From contig PLCB01000037.1 in the NCBI GenBank assembly GCA_003134695.1, positions 1-64,000 on the forward strand: a stretch of DNA of 64,000 nt, in the 5' to 3' direction. Within the stretch, counting starts at the first letter, position 1, and each line of letters begins with the position of its first letter. Made by a program: the position numbers and the translations under genes. Under the pieces are notes generated by a model. It was given only the letters and a program-made list of their open reading frames with translations. It was not told the DNA's origin and searched no databases. This DNA is from Candidatus Zemynaea palustris (GTDB lineage: Bacteria > Vulcanimicrobiota > Vulcanimicrobiia > Vulcanimicrobiales > Vulcanimicrobiaceae). Positions 42,875-56,079 of the stretch are shown here, in pieces.

Positions 42875-43546
42875 ATGGCCGCACACAAGTCGTCCAAAGC
42901 CTGGGGCGTTGCCTCGAAAAGCGAGCCCCGCTGGCCGGCGTCGCTTGCAGTATTGATCGCCGCGGCGCTCAACTTTGCCCTTCCGGCACGATATTCGATG
43001 GGACCGAGCTGGCTGGAAGGGGTGCTGGTGGTGGTGATCCTCATCCCGCTCATGGTCGCCGCGCCCCGCCGGGTTCCGGAAGAAGGGCGTTGGCAGCAGC
43101 TCCTCGCGGTCGTGCCGATCGCGATCGTCAACGTCTTCAACGTGGCTTCGCTCATCCTCTTGATCCGCGAACTGGTCACCGACTCGAAAAACGTCACCGG
43201 TTCGCACTTGCTCGTCTCCGCGCTCGCGATCTGGGTAACGAACGTCATCGTCTTCGCGCTGTGGTATTGGGAGTTGGACCGCGGGGGGCCCGACGATCGG
43301 ATGCGCGAGTCGCACGCCGCGCCGGATTTGCTCTTTCCGCAGATGATCACGCCCGATTGCAGCCACCCCGACTGGACGCCTGGCTTTCTTGACTACCTCT
43401 ACGTCGCGTTCACCAACTCGACCGCGTTCAGCCCGACGGATACGTTTCCGCTGACGCCCTGGGCCAAAACGCTCTTCACGGTTCAGGCCGTGGTTTCGCT
43501 GGTCGCGATCGCGATCGTCGCTTCGCGCGCCGTGAACATCCTCTAA
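42875..43546 (+). CDS. DUF1345-like integral membrane protein
   Basis: A 223-residue protein with five predicted helices. The C-terminal signature LYVAFTNSTAFSPTDTFPLT, then FTVQAVVSLVAIAIVASRAV, matches the conserved end of DUF1345-type proteins, in which the Asn-Ser-Thr-Ala-Phe-Ser-Pro-Thr segment resembles a channel pore loop. Function uncharacterised. It precedes the potassium operon. Confidence 0.7.
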   Translation: MAAHKSSKAWGVASKSEPRWPASLAVLIAAALNFALPARYSMGPSWLEGVLVVVILIPLMVAAPRRVPEEGRWQQLLAVVPIAIVNVFNVASLILLIRELVTDSKNVTGSHLLVSALAIWVTNVIVFALWYWELDRGGPDDRMRESHAAPDLLFPQMITPDCSHPDWTPGFLDYLYVAFTNSTAFSPTDTFPLTPWAKTLFTVQAVVSLVAIAIVASRAVNIL

Positions 43547-43713: not shown

Positions 43714-43800
43714 ATGGCCGACGACATCCTCGGCATCGTCCTGACCGTGCTCGGCATGATCTACCTTGTCTACGCGATGTTGCGCCCGGAGAAGTTTTAG
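43714..43800 (+). CDS. kdpF: Potassium-transporting ATPase subunit KdpF
   Basis: A 28-residue single-helix protein (DDILGIVLTVLGMIYLVYAM, tail LRPEKF); the YLVYAMLRPEKF end matches the KdpF pattern. It stabilises the KdpABC complex in the membrane. kdpA follows 3 bases after its stop. Confidence 0.85.
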   Translation: MADDILGIVLTVLGMIYLVYAMLRPEKF

Positions 43801-43803
43801 ACG

Positions 43804-45504
43804 TTGAATACGTACGGTTGGGTTCAGGCCGCAGTCTTCTTCGGGCTCGTCGCTCTGCTGGCGAAGCCGGTCGGCTTGTACATGTCTGGGGTCTTCCAAG
43901 GCGAGCGGACCTTCCTTGCGCCGGTTTTCGGGCCGATCGAGCGCGGCTTCTATCGCCTCTGCCGGATCGATCCCGACGTCGAGATGAGCTGGGTCGAGTA
44001 CGTCATGGCGGTCCTCGCCTTCGGCGTGGTCGGCTTGATCTATCTCTACGTGCTCTTGCGCACTCAGGCGTGGTTGCCGTTCAATCCGCAGCATTTCCCG
44101 AACCTGAGCGCCGACAACGCCTGGAACGCCTCCGTCAGCTTCTTGACCAACACGAACTGGCAGTTCTACTCGGGCGAGAGCACGATGAGCTATTTCACGC
44201 AGATGGCGGGGCTCGCGTGGCATAACTTCGTTTCGGCTGCAACCGGGATCGCCGTCGCGATCGCGGTCGTTCGCGGCATCGCGCGCACCGACAAGAAAAC
44301 GCTCGGTAACTTCTGGGTCGATCTCACGCGTGCGACACTCTATGTTCTCGTGCCGATCAGCCTCGTCGGCGCGCTAGTTCTGGTCTGGCAGGGCGTTCCG
44401 CAGAACTTCCACGCCTACCACGACGTTGCGTCGCTTGAAGGCTTCAAACAGTCGATCACGGGCGGACCGATGGCCTCGCAAGAGATCATCAAGGAGCTCG
44501 GAACGAACGGCGGCGGTTTCGTCAACGCCAACTCGGCCTCGCCCAACGAGAACCCGACGCCGCTGAGTAATCTCATCGAAATGCTCGCGATCTTTCTCAT
44601 CGGCGCGGGCTTGACGTACACGTACGGGCGGATGGTGCGCGACCAGCGTCAAGGCTGGGCGCTGTTCGCGGCGATGAGCGTCCTCTTCGTCGGGGGATTC
44701 GCCGCGTCGTACGCCGCCGAAGCCGCCGGGAATCCGCTCGTCCACCAACTCGCCGTCGCGGGCGGCAACCTCGAGGGGAAGGAGCAGCGCTTCGGCGTCG
44801 CGGCATCGGCGCTGTTCGCGACGGTCACGACCGACACGTCGTGCGGAGCCGTGAACGCGATGCACGACTCGTTCATGCCGCTCGGCGGACTCGTCCCGCT
44901 GGCGAACATGCAACTCGGCGAGATCGTCTTCGGCGGCGTCGGAACGGGCCTCTACGGGATGATCGTCTTCGTCGTGCTGACGGTCTTCATCGCGGGCCTG
45001 ATGGTCGGGCGCACCCCCGAGTATCTCGGGAAGAAGATCGAGCGGCGCGAGATGCAGCTCGCGATTCTGGCGGCGCTCGTGCTTCCGGTGCTCGCGCTGA
45101 TCCCGTCTGCGGTTTCGGTGCTGTTGAAAGCCGGCACGGCGACGCTCGGCAACAACGGCGCGCACGGGTTCTCGGAGATCCTCTACATGTTTGCCTCGAC
45201 GACCGAGAACAACGGGAGTGCGTTCGCGGGCATCGGCGGTAACCTCTACTTGAACCTGGTCACCGGCGCCGTGATGCTCCTCGGTCGCTACGGCTTCCTC
45301 ATCCCGATCATGGCGCTCGCCGGCTCGCTCGCCGGGAAGAAGAGCGTCCCGGAGACGCTCGGAACCTTCAAGACGCACTCGCCGATCTTCGTGTTCCTCT
45401 TGCTCGGCGTGATCGTGATCGTCGGACTCTTGACGTTCGTCCCCGCCGACGCGCTGGGCCCGATCGTCGAGCAACTCCAACTCCAACAGGGCAAGGTGTT
45501 CTGA
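43804..45504 (+). CDS. kdpA: Potassium-transporting ATPase subunit KdpA (copy 1)
   Basis: A 566-residue channel-like subunit started by TTG with GGAGAAG upstream. Four pore-loop filters are visible: [30 protein letters not shown] (about residue 232), [15 protein letters not shown] (about 345) and [11 protein letters not shown]. KdpA binds and selects K+ and passes it to KdpB through the intersubunit tunnel. The filters have consensus form, so this copy should be the functional partner of kdpB and kdpC encoded next. Confidence 0.97.
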
Positions 45505-47558
45505 TGATTTCGCAGCGCCGTATCGAGCGCCGTCCGCAGTCGCGCTCACTCCTCGACACCGCGATTCTGTGGCGCGCGACGCTTGACTCGTTCGTGAAGC
45601 TCGACCCGCGCGTCCAGATGCGCAATCCCGTCATGTTCGTCGTCGAAGTCGGCGCCGCGGCAGTCACCGGCTTTTTCTTCCGTGACATCTTCACGCCGGG
45701 CCACGGCAGTGCCGGTTTCGACTTCGCGATCGCGGCGTGGTTGTGGTTTACCGTCGTATTCGCGAACTTCGCCGAAGCGATGGCGGAAGGCCGCGGAAAA
45801 GCGCAAGCGGAGTTCATGCGGCGCACGAAGACGGAGACGACCGCGCGCCGCGTCGTCGACGGGAAAGAGGAGGTCGTCAGCGCCGCCGCGCTGCGCCGCG
45901 GCGACGTCGTGCGCGTCAACGCCGGCGAGCTGGTTCCGGGCGACGGTGACGTGATCGAAGGTGCCGCAAGCGTCGACGAATCGGCGATTACGGGGGAGTC
46001 CGCCCCGGTCATCCGCGCGGCGGGCGGCGATCGCAGCGCCGTCACCGGTGGAACCCGTGTGCTTTCGGATAGCATCTTGATTCGCATCACCTCGAATCCC
46101 GGCGAGACGTTCCTCGACCGGATGATCGCGCTCGTCGAAGGTGCGCAACGGCAAAAGACGCCGAACGAGATCGCGCTCGCGATCCTGCTGGCAGGCTTGA
46201 CCATCATCTTCGTCATCGCGGTCGCGACGCTCGCACCGTTTTCGATTTACGCCGGCGCTCATCAGAGCGTGACGGTGCTGATCGCGCTCTTGGTCTGCCT
46301 GATTCCAACCACGATCGGCGGTTTGCTCTCGGCGATCGGGATCGCCGGGATGGACCGCGTCATGCAACGCAACGTCCTCGCCGCGAGCGGTCGCGCGGTC
46401 GAAGCCGCCGGCGACGTCGACACGCTTTTGCTCGACAAGACCGGGACGATTACCCTCGGGAACCGGCAGGCCAGCGAGTTCGTCGCGGCGCCGGGCGTCA
46501 CCGTCGAAGAGTTATCGCTGGCGGCCTACCTCTCGTCGTTGCCCGACGAGACGCCGGAGGGCCAGTCGATCGTCACTCTGGCGCAGACCTCGATTTCCGG
46601 CGAGGTCGCGATTCCAGCCGGTTCGACGTTCGTACCGTTCAGCGCATACACGCGGATGAGCGGACTCGATCTCGCCGGCGGCGGTGCGATTCGGAAAGGC
46701 GCGCCGGATGCGGTGCGCGCCTGGGTGCGCGAGCGTGGGGGCGAGGACTCAGGCGAGCTCTCGAAGGACGTGGAACGTATCGCGCGTTCCGGCGGAACGC
46801 CGCTCTTGCTGGCGCGCGACGGCCGGGTGCTCGCCGCGATCCATCTCAAAGACATCCTCAAGCCCAACACCAAGGAGCGGTTCGACAGGCTGCGCGCGAT
46901 GGGGATTCGGACGGTGATGATCACCGGCGACAACCCGCTCACGGCCAACGCGATCGCGCGTGAAGCGGGGGTCGACGACTTTCTCGCCGAGGCGACGCCG
47001 GAGACGAAGATGGCGCTCATCAAGCGCGAGCAAGTCTCGGGACGTCTTGTCGCGATGACCGGCGACGGCACCAACGACGCGCCCGCCTTGGCCCAAGCCG
47101 ACGTCGGCGTTGCGATGAACTCCGGGACGCAGGCGGCCAAAGAGGCCGCCAACATGATCGATCTCGACTCCGATCCGACTAAATTGATCGAGATCGTCGA
47201 GATCGGCAAGCAGCTCTTGATGACTCGCGGAGCGCTCACGACGTTTTCGATCGCCAACGACGTCGCGAAGTATTTCGCAATCCTGCCGGCGATGTTCGTG
47301 ATCGCCTATCCGGCGATGGACGTCCTCAACGTCATGCGGCTCAACCCGCACAGCGCGATCCTCTCGGCCGTGATCTTCAACGCGCTCATCATCGTCGCCC
47401 TGATCCCGCTCGCTCTCAAGGGCGTCGCCTACCGGCCGCGCGGTGCCGACGCCGTCTTGCGCGACAACGTGCTGGTCTACGGCGTCGGCGGAATCATCCT
47501 TCCGTTCATCGGAATCAAAATGATCGATATGTTGCTTGCGGCCTTCCACCTGACATGA
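45504..47558 (+). CDS. kdpB: Potassium-transporting P-type ATPase subunit KdpB
   Basis: A 684-residue P-type ATPase. Phosphorylated Asp in [12 protein letters not shown] (about residue 311), actuator motif [15 protein letters not shown]-site region [11 protein letters not shown] and hinge [20 protein letters not shown]. It powers K+ uptake with KdpA and KdpC. Its start overlaps the kdpA stop (TGATG), and kdpC overlaps its end. Confidence 0.97.
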
Positions 47559-48127
47559 AGAAACATCTCGTTACGGCCGCGCTCTTTACCGTTTTCTCGG
47601 TCATCGCACTCGGGATCGTGTACCCGCTGGTGATGACCGGGATCTCGATGCTCGTCTTCCCCGCGCAGGCCAACGGCTCGCTGGTCACGGCCAACGGCAA
47701 GGTCGTCGGTTCGCGGATTATCGGCCAACAGTGGACCAAACCGCAGTACTTCCACGGGCGCTTGTCGGCTGCGGGAAAAGGTTACGATCCGACCTCGACC
47801 GGCGGCACGAATCTGGCGCCGACCTCGAAGAAACTGATCGACGCGACCAAAGCGGCGGTCGTCGCGCTGAAGAAGGAAAACCCCGATGCGAGGGGACCGG
47901 TTCCGATGGATCTCGTCACCTCGAGCGCGAGCGGCATCGATCCCGACATCAGCGTCGAGGCTGCGTATTATCAAGTTCCACGCATCGCCAAGGCGCGCGG
48001 CCTCTCATCGGCGGCGGTCTATACCCTCGTCGACCATCACGTGCAGGGGCGCACCCTCGGGTTTCTGGGCGAACCCCGCGTCAACGTCTTGGAACTCAAC
48101 CTGAGCCTCGACGCCGCCCGAAGTTAG
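47555..48127 (+). CDS. kdpC: Potassium-transporting ATPase subunit KdpC
   Basis: A 190-residue protein with one N-terminal helix ([20 protein letters not shown]) and periplasmic domain containing [40 protein letters not shown] and [13 protein letters not shown], all conserved in KdpC. It stabilises the complex. ATG overlaps the kdpB stop by 4 bases. Confidence 0.96.
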
Positions 48128-48153: not shown

Positions 48154-49845
48154 ATGCCGGCGCTGAGTTGGATCAATCTTCTCGCCGTCCTCGGCGTCCT
48201 GTTGCTCCTGACCAAACCGCTCGGCGGATACATCGAGCGCGTCTTCGGCGGGCAGCGAACATTGTTGTCGCCGCTGCTCGAACCCGTCGAGCGCGTCGTC
48301 TACCGCTTGTGCCGCGTGTCGTCGGCCGAGATGTCGTGGAGCGGCTACGCGCTCGGGGCCCTTGCTGTCGGTGCGGCGTCGGTGAGCGCGCTCTACGTCA
48401 TTTTGCGGGTCCAGCAGTGGCTTCCGCTCAACCCACAGCATTTCACGAATTTGGCGCCGGACGTCGCATTCAATACCGCCATCAGCTTTGCGACGACGAC
48501 GAATTGGCAGGTTTATAGCGGCGAAAACGCCCTGAGTTATCTCTCCCAGATGGCCGGGATCGTGCCGCAGATGTTTGTGGCGAGCGCCGTCGGCTTGGCT
48601 CTAGGGATCGCCTTCATCCGAGCGCTGGCTCGCAGCGAATCAGGAACCCTCGGAAACTTCTGGGTCGATCTCATCCGCGGCATGCTCTACCTGATGCTGC
48701 CGCTCTCCGTCATCGGCACGCTGCTCTACGCCTCCCAAGGCGTTCCGCAAAACTTTCACGCCTACGCCGACGTGCTCAATGCGGAGGGGTTCAAGCAGGC
48801 CATAACGGGCGGTCCGATGGCCTCGGAGACGATCATCGAATTGCTCGGCGGCAACGGCGGCGGCTTCGTCGGCGCTAATGCGGCGTCGCCCAACGAGAAT
48901 CCGACCGCGCTCTGCAACTTCCTCGAGCTCCTGACGATGTTGCTGATTCCGGCCGCTTTGACCAACACGTTCGGCCGGATGGTCAAGGACGTGCGCCAAG
49001 GCTGGCTCCTGTTCGCGGCGATGGCGGTGCTGCTCGTCGGCGGCGCAGTCGTCGGACAGATCGCCGAATCGCACGGAAACCCCGCGATCGCCGCGCTCGG
49101 CGTGCACGGCCCCAATTGGGAGGGGAAGGAGGCCCGGTTCGGCCCTGACTCTGCCGGACTCTCGGTTGCGGTCGCGACCGCCACGGGAAACGGCGCCGCG
49201 AACGCAACGTATGATTCGCTCATGCCGCTTGCGGACTTGGTCGCGCTCGCCAACATGCAAACCTCGGAAGTCATCTTCGGCGGCGTCGGGAGCGGATTGT
49301 ACGGTATGCTGATCTACGCGATCCTGACCGTCTTCATCGCCGGACTGATGGTGGGCCGAACGCCCGAGTATCTCGGGAAGAAGATCGCGCGCCGCGAGGT
49401 GCAGTTTGCGATGCTCGCGGTCTTGGCGTTCGCGCTTGCGGTTCTCGTCCCGGCGGCGATCGCATCGGTCTCGCGCGATGGCCGGGCCGTCCTCGGTAAC
49501 GGCGGACCTCATGGGTTCAGCGAGATCGTCTACGCTTTCACCTCGACGGCGGCGAACAACGGAAGCGCGATGGCCGGGCTCGGCTCGAACCTCTTCTACA
49601 ATCTCATGACCGCCGGAGCGATGTTCGTCGGGCGGTTCGCCGTCGCGATCGCGACGATGGCGCTCGCCGGTTCCCTCGCCGCGCAATCAAAGAGCGTGCG
49701 TCTGTCGCGGGGCACCTTCCGGACCGACACGGTCATGTTCGGCGCCTTGCTGCTCGGCGTCGTCGTCATCGTCGGCGCGCTGACGTTCCTCCCCGCCGAT
49801 TTACTCGGCCCGATCGTCGAGCAAGCGATAAACGCACGTCACTGA
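48154..49845 (+). CDS. Second, divergent KdpA paralogue
   Basis: A 563-residue KdpA homologue 26 bases after kdpC, in addition to the copy at 43804. Architecture and helices are retained, but pore loops differ: TTTNWQVYSGE, GGNGGGFVGANAASPNENP, ATGNGAANATYDSL in place of [14 protein letters not shown], and TAANNGSAMAG. The change of the third loop and of GTN to GGN may alter ion selectivity or affinity. It may be an alternative KdpA for the same KdpB and KdpC or a regulatory form. Identity as a KdpA homologue is certain; role is inference. Confidence 0.93.
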   Translation: MPALSWINLLAVLGVLLLLTKPLGGYIERVFGGQRTLLSPLLEPVERVVYRLCRVSSAEMSWSGYALGALAVGAASVSALYVILRVQQWLPLNPQHFTNLAPDVAFNTAISFATTTNWQVYSGENALSYLSQMAGIVPQMFVASAVGLALGIAFIRALARSESGTLGNFWVDLIRGMLYLMLPLSVIGTLLYASQGVPQNFHAYADVLNAEGFKQAITGGPMASETIIELLGGNGGGFVGANAASPNENPTALCNFLELLTMLLIPAALTNTFGRMVKDVRQGWLLFAAMAVLLVGGAVVGQIAESHGNPAIAALGVHGPNWEGKEARFGPDSAGLSVAVATATGNGAANATYDSLMPLADLVALANMQTSEVIFGGVGSGLYGMLIYAILTVFIAGLMVGRTPEYLGKKIARREVQFAMLAVLAFALAVLVPAAIASVSRDGRAVLGNGGPHGFSEIVYAFTSTAANNGSAMAGLGSNLFYNLMTAGAMFVGRFAVAIATMALAGSLAAQSKSVRLSRGTFRTDTVMFGALLLGVVVIVGALTFLPADLLGPIVEQAINARH

Positions 49846-51965
49846 TCCGTCGCGGCCAGGATCAGCAGCTGCTTCGCGCCGGCGTCGAGAAGGCGCCGGC
49901 CGAAAGGTACGCCGCGCGGCCACAGCGGCTTGTGCCGCGCGCCCTCGACCGCGATCGTCGTCGCCCCCTCTTCCTTCGCGGCCGCGACGAGGGCGACGGC
50001 GGGATCTTTTCCGCTGACGACGCGCCACCGGCCACGGACGCGGCGGGTCGCGTCCTCGAGCGCCGTCGTGACGCGCGAAGGCGAAGTGCCGCCGCCCCCG
50101 GCGTGAACGACCGTGAAGTCGATCCCGAGTCGCTGCGTCAAACGAGCACAGCGTTCGATGAGATCGATCTCGCGTTCGCGTGCTTTGACGCCGAGCGCGA
50201 GGCGCGCAAACGGCGACGGCCCGCGCTCGCCGCGAGCGTGCACGACCTCGCGCAGCGCCAGTTCCCGCAGCGCCGAGAGATTCTCGGTCTTGAAGAAGTT
50301 GGCGAGGGCGGCGTCGATCTTTTCTTGCCGGTAGATCTTGCCGGCGCGCAGGCGCTCGCGCAGCGTCTCGGGCGTCGTATCGATCAAGATGACCTCGTCG
50401 GCGATTTCGAGGATGTCGTCGGGGATCGTTTCGCGGACACGCTGGCCCGTCAGACGGTAGACCGCGTCGCCGAGACCTTCGAGGTGTTGGACGTTGAGCG
50501 TGGTCATCACCGAAATCCCCGCGCGCAGCACCTGTAAGACGTCGTCGAAGCGCTTGGCGTGCTCGTCACCGAGGGCATTGGTGTGCGCCAGTTCGTCGAT
50601 CAAGGCCACCTTCGGATGCCGTTTTAACAGCGCGTCAAGATCGAGTTCGCTGGCCTGCACGCCCTCCGATCCGATGATGCGGCGCGGCAAGACCTCGAGC
50701 TCGCCGATCTTCGCTTCAGTATCCGCCCGGCCGTGGGTCTCGATCAGGGCGCCGACGACATCGACGCCTTCCTCGCGAAGTTGATGCGCGCGCTCGAGCA
50801 TCGCGTAGGTCTTTCCGCTTCCCGCGGCCGCGCCCAAGTAGATCGTCAACTTGCCGTAGCCGATGCGCATTCGATCGGCGGACGTCTGCGCGTAGCGCGA
50901 GAAACTCATCGAACGGTCCGGTGCGTCGACAAGGGCCGTGGGATCGACGATGAAGACGTCGCGCTCGGCCGGTGAGGTCGCGACGCGTTGCGCGAGCGGC
51001 CCGAGCGGGATCGAGACGAGGCTTGCGCGCAATTCGCCGAAACGCGGTCGATTGGCATCGAAGGTCGCGATCGGAACGACGTGCGCGTCGACGTCGCGCG
51101 CCAAGGTCGCGAGCGCATCGAGGTCCCGTTCGCCGACCAGCGCGACGTCGAGCGCGAGATCGAGCGCTTCGGCGAACGAAGCCGATTTGCGCAAGAACGT
51201 GCCGAGGTCGCCGTTTCCGGTCGCGAGAGCGATCAGCGTCGAAGCTTTGCGCGCCACGACCGCCGGCTCGGTGAGATCGTCGATCGTTCGCAGCATCATC
51301 TCGCGCAAGAAGCGCAAGGTTTGCGGGCGGAAGACGCCGCCGCGTGCCGCAGCCACGTCGGCCGGTGCGACGATCGCTCCGGCGGTGAGGCGGGATTCGA
51401 ATTGTTCGGGCGCGAGATCAATCGCCACGACCTGATCGGCGACGCGCAGGAACGACATTGGGACGATTTCGCGGATCCGGTGGCCGATCAAGCGTTCCGC
51501 CGCCGCCGCCACGGCCTCGACGTGCTGGATGTTGAGGGCGCCGGCGACGCCGATACCGGCGTCACGTAAGGCGAGTGCATCCTCCCAACGCTTGGCGTGT
51601 TTGCTGCCCGGAAGATTCGTGTGTGCGAGCTCGTCGAGGACGACGAATTGCGGCCGCATCGTCAGCGTCGCGTCGTAATCAAATTCTTCGAAGACCGAAC
51701 TTTCGATTTTGACTCTTCGTGGGGGGACGCGAGGCAGTTGAGCGGCCAGACGATCGAGGTCGGGTCTTCCCTTCGTCTCGATCCAGCCGAGGACGACGCG
51801 CGTCCCCTCGCGCTGCAGGGCGAGCGCATCCTCGAGAAGCCGCCGCGTCTTGCCCGCGCCCGGCGCGACGGCGAGATAGACCGTCAAGCGCGGCGCGAGG
51901 CCGAGATCCTTGAGCAGTGCTTCGGCGGAGCTCTCTCCAAAACGTTCGTTCACCGGCGCGTTCAT
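49839..51965 (-). CDS. KdpD-type sensor with two fused input modules and no kinase
   Basis: A 708-residue cytoplasmic protein made of two KdpD N-terminal modules in tandem. Module 1: Walker A VAPGAGKTRRLLEDA (33-41), VVLDELAHTNLPGSKHAKRW (109 on), ALNIQHVEAV (143 on), then a USP-like domain (~245-345). Module 2: AAAGSGKTYAMLERA (379-386), ALIDELAHTNALGDEHAKRF (454 on), TLNVQHLEGL (489 on), then a second USP-like domain (~585-708). There are no membrane helices, GAF, HisKA or ATPase domains, which normal KdpD has. It is convergent with kdpA2, overlapping by 7 bases, and divergent from a separate kinase gene. In the family these modules sense K+, ionic strength or c-di-AMP. Confidence 0.92.
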   Translation of the reverse strand: MNAPVNERFGESSAEALLKDLGLAPRLTVYLAVAPGAGKTRRLLEDALALQREGTRVVLGWIETKGRPDLDRLAAQLPRVPPRRVKIESSVFEEFDYDATLTMRPQFVVLDELAHTNLPGSKHAKRWEDALALRDAGIGVAGALNIQHVEAVAAAAERLIGHRIREIVPMSFLRVADQVVAIDLAPEQFESRLTAGAIVAPADVAAARGGVFRPQTLRFLREMMLRTIDDLTEPAVVARKASTLIALATGNGDLGTFLRKSASFAEALDLALDVALVGERDLDALATLARDVDAHVVPIATFDANRPRFGELRASLVSIPLGPLAQRVATSPAERDVFIVDPTALVDAPDRSMSFSRYAQTSADRMRIGYGKLTIYLGAAAGSGKTYAMLERAHQLREEGVDVVGALIETHGRADTEAKIGELEVLPRRIIGSEGVQASELDLDALLKRHPKVALIDELAHTNALGDEHAKRFDDVLQVLRAGISVMTTLNVQHLEGLGDAVYRLTGQRVRETIPDDILEIADEVILIDTTPETLRERLRAGKIYRQEKIDAALANFFKTENLSALRELALREVVHARGERGPSPFARLALGVKAREREIDLIERCARLTQRLGIDFTVVHAGGGGTSPSRVTTALEDATRRVRGRWRVVSGKDPAVALVAAAKEEGATTIAVEGARHKPLWPRGVPFGRRLLDAGAKQLLILAATDQ

Positions 51966-52043: not shown

Positions 52044-53612
52044 GTGTCCCCGCGTTGGATCCGTCCGGCTTGCATCGTGCTGCTGGTTGCGGCATGGGTC
52101 CTGGACGTGATTACGCCGCAGCTCCTGATCGTCGCAATCTTGCTGAACGGCCCGATTGCGCTGAGCAGTCTCGCGAGCGACTCGCGTTTCACCCGCATTT
52201 TGGTCGTGCTCGCGGTGGCGGCCGACGCCAGCGGCGGCTACATCAACGGTTTGGCCGAGCACCATTGGGACACGATCGCGCTCTGGAATCGGGCGTTGGT
52301 CGCGCTTTCGTTATTCTTGGTTGGGAGTCTCAGCATCACCGCGCAGCAAGCGGCTCGGCGCGCCGGTGAGTCGGCGGCGAGGGAAGCGCGCGTGTCGCGC
52401 GAGCGCGACCTGCGGCGCGCCGTCGAGGCCATTCGCGCGTCGATCAACTCCGAGTTGATCGCGCGAGCGGCGGCACGTGGAGCACTCGACGCGCTGCACG
52501 CCGATCGAGCGCTCATCTATGTCTTCGACGAAAGCCGCGAGGTCTTCACTACCTACGACGCCGCCGGCGACGATCTGCGCGTCACGCCGGCCCGACCTCC
52601 CTCGCCGGTCCTTTCGCTTCTCGAACGCATCGCGGAGAGCCGTACCCTCGTTCGCCTCAGCGCGGCGGACACCGTTGCTCGGTTCGCGCTGGATGCGCTG
52701 GGGACGCCGCACGCGATCGGCGTCGCCCTGGCCGAGCACGACCAGCTCTTCGGCGTTCTCATTCTGTTACGGAGAGACGCGCCGTTTGAGGAAAATTTTG
52801 AAGAGGGCCTACAATATTACGCCGACCAAACGGGCATCGCTATGGCTCAGGCTTCACTGTTCGGGCAGCTGGCCGATCGCAACGAGGCGCTGGCCTTGGC
52901 AAATGCCGCGCTACGCGAGCAAAGCGACGTCATCCGTGACCTCGTCTACGCGCTTTCACATGATCTGCGAACGCCGCTCGCAGCCACGAGCCTTACGCTC
53001 CGTCAGGCTCTCGAGGGCGCCTACGGCGCGCTGCCGCAGGCGTATCGCGAGATTCTCGAACGGACGATTCGCTCGAACGACGAGCTGCAACGGCTTGCCG
53101 AGACGCTCTTGCTCGTCTCGCGGTACGAATCCGGCGACCCCTCGCCGCGCCGCGACGTCGTCGACGTAACGGCGCTGGCGCGATCGGTCGTCGACGAACT
53201 CGCGCCGCTTTGGCAGGAGAAGCGGCTGGCCGTACGCGTCGAAACGGTGGAGGCGGTCGACGTCGCAGGCGACGAGTCCGAACTGCGACGCGCACTCGTC
53301 AACCTGGTCGCCAACGCGGTGAAGTTCACGCCGGCCGGCGGCACGATCGGCGTTCGAGTCGCCGCGAACGAGCGCGCCTCCATCGTCGTCGAAGATAGCG
53401 GTTACGGTGTCGGCGAGGCCGAGCGCGCGACGCTCTTCCAACGAAGTCACGGCGATCCGCGGGTCGGCTCGAGTTCGGGGCTGGGCCTTTACCTGGTACG
53501 GCGGATCGCCGAAGGTCACGGCGGCCGTGTAGCCTACGCGCCACGACCGGGCGGCGGCAGCGCCTTCGCCATGGAACTCCCGCTCGTAGCCGAAGTCCCC
53601 GCGTCGAGATGA
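52044..53612 (+). CDS. Membrane GAF histidine kinase, probable transmitter half of a split KdpD
   Basis: A 522-residue kinase from the GTG at 52044; the longer open frame upstream is antisense to the sensor gene. The first ~95 residues hold three to four helices (ACIVLLVAAWVLDVITPQLL, ALVALSLFLVGSLSITA), then a coiled linker, a GAF domain (~130-270; AHGALDAL-type start, LALDALGTPHAIGVALAEHD region), HisKA with His306 in YALSHDLRTPLAATS, and HATPase_c with LVNLVANAVKFTP and GSSSGLGLYLVRRIAEGHGG. That order equals the C-terminal half of KdpD. ATGA coupling to the next gene makes a two-component pair. Confidence 0.88.
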   Translation: MSPRWIRPACIVLLVAAWVLDVITPQLLIVAILLNGPIALSSLASDSRFTRILVVLAVAADASGGYINGLAEHHWDTIALWNRALVALSLFLVGSLSITAQQAARRAGESAAREARVSRERDLRRAVEAIRASINSELIARAAARGALDALHADRALIYVFDESREVFTTYDAAGDDLRVTPARPPSPVLSLLERIAESRTLVRLSAADTVARFALDALGTPHAIGVALAEHDQLFGVLILLRRDAPFEENFEEGLQYYADQTGIAMAQASLFGQLADRNEALALANAALREQSDVIRDLVYALSHDLRTPLAATSLTLRQALEGAYGALPQAYREILERTIRSNDELQRLAETLLLVSRYESGDPSPRRDVVDVTALARSVVDELAPLWQEKRLAVRVETVEAVDVAGDESELRRALVNLVANAVKFTPAGGTIGVRVAANERASIVVEDSGYGVGEAERATLFQRSHGDPRVGSSSGLGLYLVRRIAEGHGGRVAYAPRPGGGSAFAMELPLVAEVPASR

Positions 53613-54247
53613 GCGAGCCACGAACCGTCGTCCTAATCGAAGATCATAGCCTGACGCGGGCCGGCCTGCGGACCGCGCTCGAGGCGAGTGGTGAACTGCG
53701 CATCGTGGCGGAGGCCGAAGACGGACCGAGCGGTCTGGACGCCATCGTCGCTCGAAAGCCCGACGTCGCCGTCGTCGACATCGGCTTGCCGGGGATCGAC
53801 GGCATCGAGGTGACGCGGCGCGCACGCCTCGTGGCGCCCGGGACCCGCGTCGTGATCCTGACGGTCCACGATCTCGAGACCGAAGTGCTGGCGGCACTTT
53901 CCGCCGGCGCCGACGCCTATTGTTTGAAGACTTCGCCGCCGGAGCGAATCGTCGCGGCGGTGATGACCGCGGCCGACGGCGGGGCGTATTTCGATCCCGG
54001 GATCGCGCGCGTCGTCATGCGCAATCTTGGCGCGCCGAACGCGCCGGCCTCTTCGTCACCGTTGACGCCGCGCGAGACGGAGATCTTGCGCATGATCGCC
54101 GAGGGCCACGGCAACACCGAAATCGCTAAGACGCTCTATCTCGGACTCGGTACGGTGAAGGGGCACATTCGCGACATCCTCGAGAAACTGGCCGCCGTCG
54201 ACCGAACGCAAGCAGCAGTCGTCGCGCTCAGGCGAGGTTTGATCTAG
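53609..54247 (+). CDS. NarL/FixJ-family response regulator
   Basis: A 212-residue regulator: receiver domain with ED at 11-12, phospho-Asp57 in VAVVDIGLPGIDG and the LKTSPPERI Lys, then a LuxR-type helix-turn-helix (LTPRETEILRMIAEGHGNTE, YLGLGTVKGHIRDILEKL). It overlaps the kinase stop (ATGA). A KdpE partner would be OmpR-type, so if this pair controls kdp it is a replacement. Convergent with the GNAT gene, overlapping by 4 bases. Confidence 0.94.
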   Translation: MSEPRTVVLIEDHSLTRAGLRTALEASGELRIVAEAEDGPSGLDAIVARKPDVAVVDIGLPGIDGIEVTRRARLVAPGTRVVILTVHDLETEVLAALSAGADAYCLKTSPPERIVAAVMTAADGGAYFDPGIARVVMRNLGAPNAPASSSPLTPRETEILRMIAEGHGNTEIAKTLYLGLGTVKGHIRDILEKLAAVDRTQAAVVALRRGLI

Positions 54248-54726
54248 AGGAAGCGGTGCATCACGAGGGCGTCGACCTCGCCGAGTGTCGCATGGCGAAA
54301 CGCCTTTGGTAGGCGGCCGACGGTCTCGAAGCCATGGCGTTGCCAGAGGCGTACGGCCGCTTCGTTCGTGCCGACGACGAAATTGAATTGCATCGCACGA
54401 AAACCCGCCGCACGCGCCGCGACGAGCGAATGCTCGCACATCGCTCCGGCGATGCCGCGGCCGCGAAAGGCGGGATCGACGAGGTAGCCGGCGTTGCCGA
54501 CATGATCGCCGAGACCCATTTGGTTCGGGTGGAGCATGTACGTTCCGGCGATCTGCCCCTCGACGACCGCCACGAAAACGTGCGATCTCGGCGGAAACCA
54601 ATACGCGCGAAATTCGTCGTCGCCGGCGCCCGGTGCCGGCGTCAACGTGTCGCCGCCGGCAACTGCGAGTTCGAAGATGGCGCGTATCCGAGGAACGTCC
54701 TCGGCAGCCGCCGAGCGAATCTCGAT
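54244..54726 (-). CDS. GNAT-family N-acetyltransferase, apparent ATC start
   Basis: A GNAT fold with acetyl-CoA loop VDPAFRGRGIAGAMCEHSLV and C-terminal NFVVGTNEAAVRLWQRHGFE. The first canonical codon in frame (TTG 54645) drops the family's first strand and helix. The 27 codons before it encode exactly that element (EIRSAAAEDVPRIRAIFELA, then VAGGDTLTP). An ATC at 54726 begins this reading and shares an A with the upstream TAA stop (TAATC). With ATC the protein is 160 residues, usual for the family. Substrate unknown. Confidence 0.82.
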   Translation of the reverse strand: MEIRSAAAEDVPRIRAIFELAVAGGDTLTPAPGAGDDEFRAYWFPPRSHVFVAVVEGQIAGTYMLHPNQMGLGDHVGNAGYLVDPAFRGRGIAGAMCEHSLVAARAAGFRAMQFNFVVGTNEAAVRLWQRHGFETVGRLPKAFRHATLGEVDALVMHRFL

Positions 54727-55400
54727 TACTTCGATCCAACCAGAGCACGACGAACTTCGTCGCGCGAATCTTTGTGCACCATCACGATGATCTGGTCGCC
54801 GGCCTTGACCTGCGTGTCCCCGCTAGGGATCACGAGTTCGTCACCCTTGCGATCGACGGCGACGACGACGCTCGAACGCGGCAGCCCGATGTCGACGATG
54901 CGTTTGCCATCGGAGGGCGCGCCCGGCCCGATCGAAAGCTTCACCAGCTCGAGCGCGCCGTCGCGCATCTTCGTTAGGACCGAGTAGTCGCGCGTCTGGA
55001 CGTGCTCGTTGATCGCATCGAGGAGGATCTCGGTCGACGAGATCGTCTCGATCGGGTGCTCCGGGTCGATCGACTCGAAGATGAGACGATTCTTCGGGTT
55101 GTTGACACGCGCGATGCAGCGTGCCTTCGACTGGCGTTTGGCGATCAGGCAAACGACCAGGTTGTCTTCATCGTCGCCGGTATCGGCGACAACGACATCG
55201 GCTCGGCTCAGGCCCGCAGCGTCGAGGACCACCGGGTCGCAACCGTCACCGACGACGGCGACGTCGCTTTCCACCATCGTTGCGAGCACCTGCGCCTTGC
55301 GCGCCACCTTCTCGACGACGATGACTTCTTGTTTCTGGGCGAGCAGAGCGCGCGCGAGATACGTCCCGACCTTCCCGCCGCCAACGATCAGAATGAACAC
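54726..55400 (-). CDS. TrkA/KtrA-like potassium channel regulator, copy 1
   Basis: A 224-residue GTG-started protein with Rossmann RCK_N domain (FILIVGGGKVGTYLARALLA, ADVVVADTGDDEDNLVVCLI) and C-terminal RCK_C domain (GLPRSSVVVAVDRKGDELVI, GDQIIVMVHKDSRDEV). It forms gating rings binding NAD(H) or ATP for Trk/Ktr K+ uptake. The paralogue at 55402 precedes it, one base apart; such pairs (CeoB/CeoC type) occur in several phyla. No TrkH/KtrB gene is present in the window. Confidence 0.93.
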   Translation of the reverse strand: MFILIVGGGKVGTYLARALLAQKQEVIVVEKVARKAQVLATMVESDVAVVGDGCDPVVLDAAGLSRADVVVADTGDDEDNLVVCLIAKRQSKARCIARVNNPKNRLIFESIDPEHPIETISSTEILLDAINEHVQTRDYSVLTKMRDGALELVKLSIGPGAPSDGKRIVDIGLPRSSVVVAVDRKGDELVIPSGDTQVKAGDQIIVMVHKDSRDEVRRALVGSK

Positions 55401-55401
55401 G

Positions 55402-56079
55402 TTACGAGATGATTTCTACCGGCGCTTTCGCCGAGGTCGCGAATCGTTTGGAAAATTGTTCGAGCGCCTCCGGAGCGACGATCGCCCTGATTTCGTCGCC
55501 CTCCTGGAGGACGACGTCGTTTCCGGGGATCACCACGCGGCCGCCACGGCGCAGAGCCGCTATCTTGACGCGAGCATCCTGCTCGAGTTCGGCGACGCGC
55601 GTCCCCGCAACGTCTTTCGGGACGATGATCGATAGGGCCGAAATACCGCCATAGTCAAAAGACGGCGTCGATTCAAACGGCATGTTCAGCAGTCTGTCGC
55701 GGATAACTTTCGCGCCCATCGTGGTCGGACAGACCGTTTCGATGCCGAGCTCGCGGTACAGCTGCCCGCGCGGTGGATCGTAGATGCGCGCGACGATTTT
55801 CTTGATGCCGAACATGCGCTGCGCGATGAGCGCGGCCATCACGTTCCGGTTGTCGCCGTCGGTGACGGCGACGAAGCCGTCGGCATCGGCTGCGCCGGCA
55901 CGTTTGAGGACGTCGTAGTCGATGCCGGTGCCGACCTCGACCCGTCCGGGAAAGCGTACGCCTAAACGCTTGAAGGCGGCGGGGTTTTCGTCGATGACGA
56001 CGACGTCGTGGCCTTCCGCGGCCAGAAGTTTTGCAAGTTGCGATCCGACGCGTCCGCAGCCGACGATAACGTATTTCAT
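55402..56079 (-). CDS. TrkA/KtrA-like potassium channel regulator, copy 2
   Basis: A 225-residue RCK protein: KYVIVGCGRVGSQLAKLLAA (GxGxxG), VVVIDENPAAFKRLG with the ribose-binding acidic residue, ADGFVAVTDGDNRNVMAALI, and C-terminal domain VAELEQDARVKIAALRRGGR. It likely forms a hetero-oligomeric gating ring with the neighbouring copy. First gene of the minus-strand trkA-trkA-GNAT operon, 77 bases from the tRNA gene. Confidence 0.93.
   Translation of the reverse strand: MKYVIVGCGRVGSQLAKLLAAEGHDVVVIDENPAAFKRLGVRFPGRVEVGTGIDYDVLKRAGAADADGFVAVTDGDNRNVMAALIAQRMFGIKKIVARIYDPPRGQLYRELGIETVCPTTMGAKVIRDRLLNMPFESTPSFDYGGISALSIIVPKDVAGTRVAELEQDARVKIAALRRGGRVVIPGNDVVLQEGDEIRAIVAPEALEQFSKRFATSAKAPVEIIS

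What the first reader, a model, noticed from the sequence alone, without database searches (positions are those of the whole stretch)
49839..51965. Kinase-less sensor made of two tandem KdpD input modules
Two complete KdpD-N plus USP units, each with intact Walker A and DELAHTN motifs, are fused in one soluble protein with no transmembrane or kinase part. An internal duplication of the K+/c-di-AMP input is to my knowledge not a standard KdpD architecture.
Basis: partly seen in the sequence, partly recalled or inferred. Interest (0 to 1): 0.7.

Follow-up and report, generated by a model that had tools for sequence, protein, structure and literature searches.

The report
Tandem two-module KdpD potassium-pump kinase
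This gene encodes a soluble protein made of two fused copies of the KdpD front-end domain next to a potassium-pump operon; it is real and conserved, is probably a dedicated serine kinase that shuts off the pump, and the fused arrangement is undescribed in the papers searched but turns out to be common in Paenibacillus relatives.

Summary
ORF 49839-51965(-) encodes 708 aa with two PF02702 (KdpD-N) domains, intact Walker A and DELAHTN in both, no TM and no histidine-kinase part. The halves are 41% identical, so this is not an assembly artefact. The tandem occurs in essentially every Kdp-positive genome of the window's class within Candidatus Eremiobacterota.

The reading changes. E. coli KdpD-N is an experimentally shown atypical serine kinase (ASK) that inhibits KdpB at Ser162 (PMC11018627). 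The likeliest role here is a stand-alone pump-silencing kinase, not a 'kinase-less sensor'. The C-module keeps the full active-site signature in 58/58 kdp-type copies. The N-module has a conserved altered one (His63->Lys 58/58; aromatic 39->Arg/His). C-module invariants break in 5 of 8 copies that lack a Kdp partner, and in 0 of 58 others.

The architecture is not unique. Full-length single-frame tandems occur in about 215 of 300 Paenibacillales genomes, plus Bacillus methanolicus, Ca. Cyanaurora and Dormibacterota, mostly with one canonical and one eroded module. No held paper describes it. Verdict: new variant of a known kind (short KdpD/Usp ASK), apparently a kinase plus pseudokinase fusion. 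Function is inferred, not shown.

The parts
49839..51965 (-). tandem KdpD protein (708 aa)
   Evidence: ORF; two PF02702
51282..51890 (-). N-module KdpD domain (diverged active-site signature: Arg at position 39, ETKGR)
   Evidence: PF02702 212.6 bits; residue table
51846..51860 (-). N-module Walker A, GAGKT (residues 36-40)
   Evidence: sequence; invariant in A1
51615..51635 (-). N-module Walker B DELAHTN (residues 111-117)
   Evidence: sequence
50946..51239 (-). N-module USP-like domain, shortened (residues 243-340)
   Evidence: AF2 secondary structure; no Pfam Usp match
50241..50855 (-). C-module KdpD domain (canonical)
   Evidence: PF02702 286.6 bits; 2r8r alignment E 1.5e-58
50808..50822 (-). 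C-module Walker A, GSGKT (residues 382-386)
   Evidence: sequence
50577..50597 (-). C-module Walker B DELAHTN (residues 457-463)
   Evidence: sequence
49857..50204 (-). C-module USP-like domain (residues 588-703)
   Evidence: AF2 model; Foldseek hits to USPs incl. 7ji4, query range not reported by the tool
43714..43800 (+). kdpF (28 aa, MADDILGIVLTVLGMIYLVYAMLRPEKF)
43804..45504 (+). kdpA
   Evidence: PF03814 790.8 bits
45504..47558 (+). kdpB; carries TGES, the presumed substrate serine (Ser162 in E. coli)
47555..48127 (+). kdpC
   Evidence: PF02669
48154..49845 (+). second kdpA (KdpA2) with altered selectivity-filter loops; 3' end overlaps the tandem gene's end
   Evidence: PF03814 686 bits; filter alignment
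52044..53612 (+). membrane GAF histidine kinase, divergent from the tandem gene (78 bp between start codons)
   Evidence: conserved neighbour
53609..54247 (+). LuxR/NarL-type response regulator (not OmpR-type KdpE)
   Evidence: PF00072 + PF00196

Best explanation
The protein is a stand-alone, soluble, two-module version of the KdpD atypical serine kinase (ASK). It most likely phosphorylates KdpB on the TGES serine to switch off the KdpFABC pump when K+ is sufficient, while transcription of kdp is left to the separate divergent GAF histidine kinase and LuxR-type regulator. The C-terminal module is the catalytic one. The N-terminal module, an old duplicate, still binds nucleotide but has been re-specialised into a regulatory or partner subunit, so the chain is a built-in asymmetric dimer (kinase + pseudokinase-like module), with the USP domains as the presumed ligand-sensing part. 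SHOWN here: the architecture, linkage to kdp, conservation of every ASK residue in the C-module, the systematic substitutions in the N-module, conservation of the KdpB target, and recurrence in other lineages. INFERRED: kinase activity, its target, the asymmetry of function, nucleotide binding by the N-module, and the ligand.
For: (1) E. coli KdpD-N alone phosphorylates KdpB S162, needing Walker A, D109, E110 and W39/R190, and short KdpD/Usp from D. geothermalis does the same under c-di-AMP (PMC11018627). (2) C-module: K37, T38, H63, R65, D109, E110, H113, N115, N143, Q145, H146, R190 are all conserved in 58/58 kdp-type class members. (3) KdpB TGES serine is present in all 59 KdpBs whose motif could be read, including relatives of all lineages sampled; the window's KdpB has it too. 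(4) Tandem and KdpA co-occur: among class genomes >=90% complete, 54 have both, 0 have KdpA without the tandem, 5 the tandem alone, 13 neither (Fisher 1e-10). (5) Natural experiment: C-module invariants are broken in 5 of 8 copies lacking a Kdp partner (five different genera) versus 0 of 58 others (Fisher 6e-6). (6) In Firmicutes, where a tandem (or an adjacent pair of short kdpDs) sits beside a full-length histidine-kinase KdpD, that KdpD lost Glu110 in 4 of 4 cases (L071 D, L072 R, L077 N, L134 G), while all 65 other single KdpD domains compared keep it; the only other exception is the N-module fragment of a frame-broken tandem in L130. This fits one surviving catalytic ASK per system. (7) Asymmetry recurs: Eremio N-module H63->K 58/58 and aromatic39->R/H 54 of 57; Paenibacillales N-module E110->G/D 13/13 and QH->YE 13/13; Dormibacterota C-module loses the Walker A Lys and E110 in 2/2. 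(8) A diadenylate cyclase gene is present in the genome.
Against: No activity, binding or phosphorylation data exist for any tandem protein. In Eremiobacterota the N-module still keeps D109/E110 in 58/58 and Walker A wherever readable, so it may not be catalytically dead. Three copies without a detectable Kdp partner (G042, G087, G102) keep an intact C-module, two of them in a trkA operon, which hints at another role. The Firmicutes c-di-AMP motif is not met in either USP (non-diagnostic). NCBIfam calls the parent group 'non-kinase potassium sensor'. pTM is 0.51, so the relative placement of the modules is unknown.
Confidence: 0.62

Rival explanations
1. Both modules are active serine kinases; the fusion only fixes a dimer or doubles avidity for two pump complexes (or for pumps with KdpA versus KdpA2).
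For: In the window both modules have intact Walker A and DE; Eremio N-modules keep K37, T38, D109, E110 and R190 throughout.
Against: The adenine-stacking aromatic is replaced by Arg/His in nearly all N-modules and THGR's His by Lys in all of them; in E. coli the W39A/R190A double mutant almost abolishes activity. In Paenibacillales and Dormibacterota the non-canonical module lacks E110 outright. Most relatives with the tandem have a single KdpA, so the two modules do not track two KdpAs.
Confidence: 0.15
2. It is a non-catalytic sensor/scaffold that binds K+-related ligands (c-di-AMP, ATP) and modulates the neighbouring GAF histidine kinase, i.e. the first reader's reading.
For: Divergent gene pair with the histidine kinase is conserved across the class; in E. 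coli the Usp domain of KdpD is a scaffold for signalling (PMC2714519 abstract); NCBIfam label 'non-kinase potassium sensor'.
Against: Strict conservation of ASK catalytic residues in the C-module and their erosion when Kdp is absent; in Paenibacillales the tandem sits at the end of kdpABC, often with no adjacent histidine kinase.
Confidence: 0.15
3. It regulates another K+ system, such as the TrkA-dependent one encoded beside it, in addition to or instead of Kdp.
For: In G087, G102, G001 and G035 (second copy) the gene directly follows trkA2-trkA1, with no Kdp in the first three genomes; two of these are intact.
Against: The trk-linked arrangement looks like what remains after loss of kdp and HK/RR from the usual cluster (inference); no TrkH/KtrB in any of 12 genomes tested; most copies without a Kdp partner have damaged signatures.
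Confidence: 0.06
4. Assembly or annotation artefact (collapsed or duplicated contig).
For: None found.
Against: Halves 41% identical at protein level; the same fusion in about 90 genomes of the class and in isolate genomes of Paenibacillaceae.
Confidence: 0.005

Closest known systems
Short KdpD/Usp atypical serine kinase (e.g. Deinococcus geothermalis KdpD, PMC11018627)
   Same: PF02702 + USP, soluble, no TM/HK, encoded with kdpFABC, split from the histidine kinase, organism has a diadenylate cyclase
   Different: Two modules in one chain; N-module signature altered; c-di-AMP response untested; gene convergent to kdp here rather than downstream in the operon; response regulator is LuxR-type
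Full-length KdpD (E. coli)
   Same: Each half resembles residues ~20-380 of KdpD
   Different: No TM, GAF, DHp or CA domains; duplicated
NCBIfam NF038185 'KdpD-like non-kinase potassium sensor'
   Same: Best NCBIfam match, two stretches
   Different: Window protein scores 467 against the 550 cut-off; model is one module long (373); Paenibacillus and Cyanaurora tandems exceed it (716, 791)
Tandem KdpD-USP-KdpD-USP proteins of Paenibacillales, Ca. Cyanaurora, Dormibacterota (found here)
   Same: Same domain order, single ORF, next to kdpABC wherever kdp context was visible, usually one canonical and one eroded module
   Different: Which residues, and in Dormibacterota which module, are eroded differ; origins probably more than one

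Membership tests
KdpD atypical serine kinase (ASK) domain | PF02702 domain | tested here: met
   two matches, 212.6 and 286.6 bits
KdpD atypical serine kinase (ASK) domain | Walker A Lys/Thr and Walker B D109/E110 | tested here: met
   both modules in the window; class-wide N and C
KdpD atypical serine kinase (ASK) domain | adenine pair: aromatic at 39 plus R190 | tested here: inconclusive
   C-module Tyr + Arg: met; N-module Arg + Arg: not met
KdpD atypical serine kinase (ASK) domain | phosphorylates KdpB TGES serine | not testable with these tools
   target serine present in adjacent KdpB; activity needs an assay
Short KdpD/Usp ASK | no TM, DHp or CA domain | tested here: met
Short KdpD/Usp ASK | USP domain after KdpD-N | tested here: inconclusive
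   C-module USP-like by AF2, with USP folds among the Foldseek hits; N-module shortened; no Pfam Usp match
Short KdpD/Usp ASK | single KdpD-N module | tested here: not met
   two modules; hence 'variant', not plain member
Short KdpD/Usp ASK | encoded with kdpABC | tested here: met
Short KdpD/Usp ASK | c-di-AMP-stimulated | not testable with these tools
   DAC gene present; Firmicutes motif absent but non-diagnostic
NCBIfam NF038185 KdpD_non_kinase | score >= 550 | tested here: not met
   467.4 bits
Canonical KdpD/KdpE two-component system | HK domain on the KdpD chain and OmpR-type KdpE | tested here: not met
   separate GAF HK and LuxR-type RR

The most novel reading that the evidence does not exclude
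Bacteria have repeatedly built a kinase-pseudokinase fusion out of the KdpD serine-kinase domain: one module phosphorylates the K+ pump and the other, having lost or changed its active site, acts as an allosteric nucleotide or second-messenger-sensing partner. This would be a bacterial counterpart of eukaryotic kinase/pseudokinase pairs, arising more than once and with either half degenerating.
Probability: 0.45. Interest if true: 0.65.

Novelty: new variant of a known kind. Interest (0 to 1): 0.52.

Why it matters
The serine-kinase role of KdpD-N was only established in 2024, and its regulation is open. Tandem proteins that keep one active site and erode the other are natural separation-of-function mutants: they suggest the ASK works as a dimer, show which residues catalysis needs, and point to Paenibacillus as culturable material. 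The loss of Glu110 from neighbouring full-length KdpDs, and the erosion of the C-module where Kdp is gone, give independent evolutionary support that KdpB is the substrate.

Tried and rejected
Assembly duplication: rejected (41% protein identity, about 90 genomes). Two modules matching two KdpA genes in the window: rejected as the driver, because KdpA2 is found in only a minority of the class while the tandem is nearly universal with Kdp. One origin of all tandems: not resolved. The tree joins Eremiobacterota and Cyanaurora halves (85/91) but AU tests do not reject Eremio+Cyanaurora+Paenibacillales (p 0.11 for canonical halves, 0.43 for diverged halves); adding Dormibacterota canonical halves is marginally rejected (p 0.046). 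Firmicutes c-di-AMP motif as a test of ligand: absent from all the single KdpDs too, so useless. Rfam scan for a riboswitch in the window: only a tRNA. Module placement could not be judged (pTM 0.51).

Full report
OBSERVATION. The ORF at 49839-51965 on the minus strand (ATG, 708 aa) carries two PF02702 KdpD domains, the only two in the 2.70 Mb, 97% complete genome. Both have Walker A (GAGKT, GSGKT) and DELAHTN. No TM segment and no histidine-kinase domain were found. The halves share 41% identity over 221 residues with only short patchy DNA similarity. An AF2 model (mean pLDDT 80.8, pTM 0.51) shows KdpD fold, short USP-like domain, flexible linker, KdpD fold, fuller USP-like domain. Foldseek finds the KdpD-N crystal structure 2r8r (TM 0.94 on target) and many USPs including 7ji4, the KdpD-USP/c-di-AMP structure. 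Pfam does not recognise either USP.

SETTING. The cluster is kdpF-kdpA-kdpB-kdpC-kdpA2 on plus; the tandem gene is convergent, overlapping the end of kdpA2. A GAF histidine kinase with N-terminal hydrophobic segments and a LuxR-type response regulator are divergent from the tandem gene, then a trkA pair. In relatives the order kdpABC / tandem / HK / RR is strongly conserved. One relative's contig (G045:C19, 57118 bases) matches in length a record titled Candidatus Eremiobacterota (L068), which identifies the phylum by inference.

DISTRIBUTION. Within the phylum (149 genomes held) the tandem is confined to the window's class; other classes have ordinary KdpD. In class genomes at least 90% complete, 54 have tandem and KdpA, none has KdpA without the tandem, 5 have the tandem alone and 13 neither (tallied by hand). 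A genome-collection scan and ORF-level check found the same architecture in single ORFs of 700-850 aa in Paenibacillus, Saccharibacillus, Bacillus methanolicus PB1, Ca. Cyanaurora vandensis and two Dormibacterota MAGs. In Paenibacillales, 242 of 300 genomes match the tandem profile and about 215 reach E=0, the listed rows spanning essentially the whole 773-position model in one frame. In cyanobacteria it is rare (4 of 146); in the Chloroflexota/Dormibacterota sample 1 of 81. Wherever the kdp context is visible in those loci the tandem is next to kdpABC. Adjacent but unfused pairs of short kdpD genes also exist (L134; G490), plausible precursors.

ASYMMETRY. In E. coli numbering, the C-module of kdp-type class members keeps K37, T38, H63, R65, D109, E110, H113, N115, N143, Q145, H146 and R190 in 58/58. 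The N-module keeps K37, T38, D109, E110 and R190 but has Lys at 63 in 58/58, Arg/His/Tyr (46/8/3) at 39, and mostly Ala or Gln at 145. Paenibacillales N-modules have E110->G/D in 13/13 and QH->YE in 13/13. Dormibacterota are mirror-imaged: the N-module is canonical and the C-module lost Lys37 and Glu110. Cyanaurora has both nearly canonical. Eremio N and C modules each form clades (100, 99), with the Cyanaurora N and C modules next to them respectively (85, 91), which suggests a shared duplication; the number of origins overall is unresolved.

MECHANISM. PMC11018627 shows that KdpD-N alone transfers phosphate from ATP to KdpB S162, needs Walker A, D109 and E110, and loses almost all activity in the W39A/R190A double mutant. 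It also shows that a short KdpD/Usp protein does so under c-di-AMP control, and that such proteins go with separate histidine kinases. The window has all of these elements: separate HK, KdpB with TGES, a diadenylate cyclase. Two natural experiments support KdpB as the target. First, where the genome lacks KdpA, or the copy is a second trk-linked one, C-module invariants are damaged in 5 of 8 copies from five genera, against 0 of 58. Second, full-length KdpDs that coexist with a tandem or pair of short KdpDs have lost Glu110 in 4 of 4, against retention in all 65 other single domains; one further non-Glu case is a fragment of a broken tandem. Both comparisons were framed after seeing the alignments, so the p-values are descriptive. 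I therefore favour a dedicated pump-silencing ASK with a catalytic C-module and a regulatory N-module. Activity, target and ligand are inferences.

LITERATURE. Searches of the held library found no description of tandem KdpD proteins; absence there is not proof of absence elsewhere, and the supplementary tables of PMC11018627 could not be opened. NCBIfam's NF038185 already names the group without noting the duplication.

VERDICT. Observation confirmed; interpretation partly supported; a new variant of a known kind, widespread rather than unique, with a testable kinase/pseudokinase hypothesis.

Noticed in passing
48154-49845 (+): A second KdpA (KdpA2) with altered K+-filter loops (NTNW->TTNW, GTNGGG->GGNGGG, SCGAVN->GNGAAN). 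At least 14 other genomes of the class have a similar divergent KdpA2, in several cases near or divergent from kdpABC; possibly a different ion selectivity or a regulatory subunit.
   Followed up: partly
L042, L053, L144, L145 (and L034, L035, L049, L056): Tandem copies without a kdp partner; in L042, L053, L144 and L145 the gene follows trkA2-trkA1 directly. Some have damaged active sites and some intact ones, so a Trk-related role or decay after Kdp loss is open.
   Followed up: partly
window genome G000: No TrkH/KtrB and no Kup in the genome, although a trkA pair sits at 54726-56079; Kdp may be the main recognisable K+ importer.
   Followed up: partly
L071:553-3246, L072:1544-4498, L077:12323-15028, L134:12075-14849: Full-length histidine-kinase KdpDs next to tandem or paired short KdpDs have lost the essential Walker-B Glu110 in their ASK domain.
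   Followed up: partly
L134:9938-12183; G490:C65:1216-3553: Adjacent unfused pairs of short kdpD genes, plausible precursors of the fusion.
   Followed up: no
42875-43546 (+): 223-aa multi-TM membrane protein just upstream of kdpF, identity not checked.
   Followed up: no
53609-54247 (+): kdp-linked response regulator is LuxR/NarL-type rather than OmpR-type KdpE, conserved across the class with the GAF histidine kinase.
   Followed up: partly
G229, G251, G317, G319, G367, G440 (Paenibacillales): Six full-length tandem genes carry one in-frame stop each: pseudogenes or sequencing errors.
   Followed up: no
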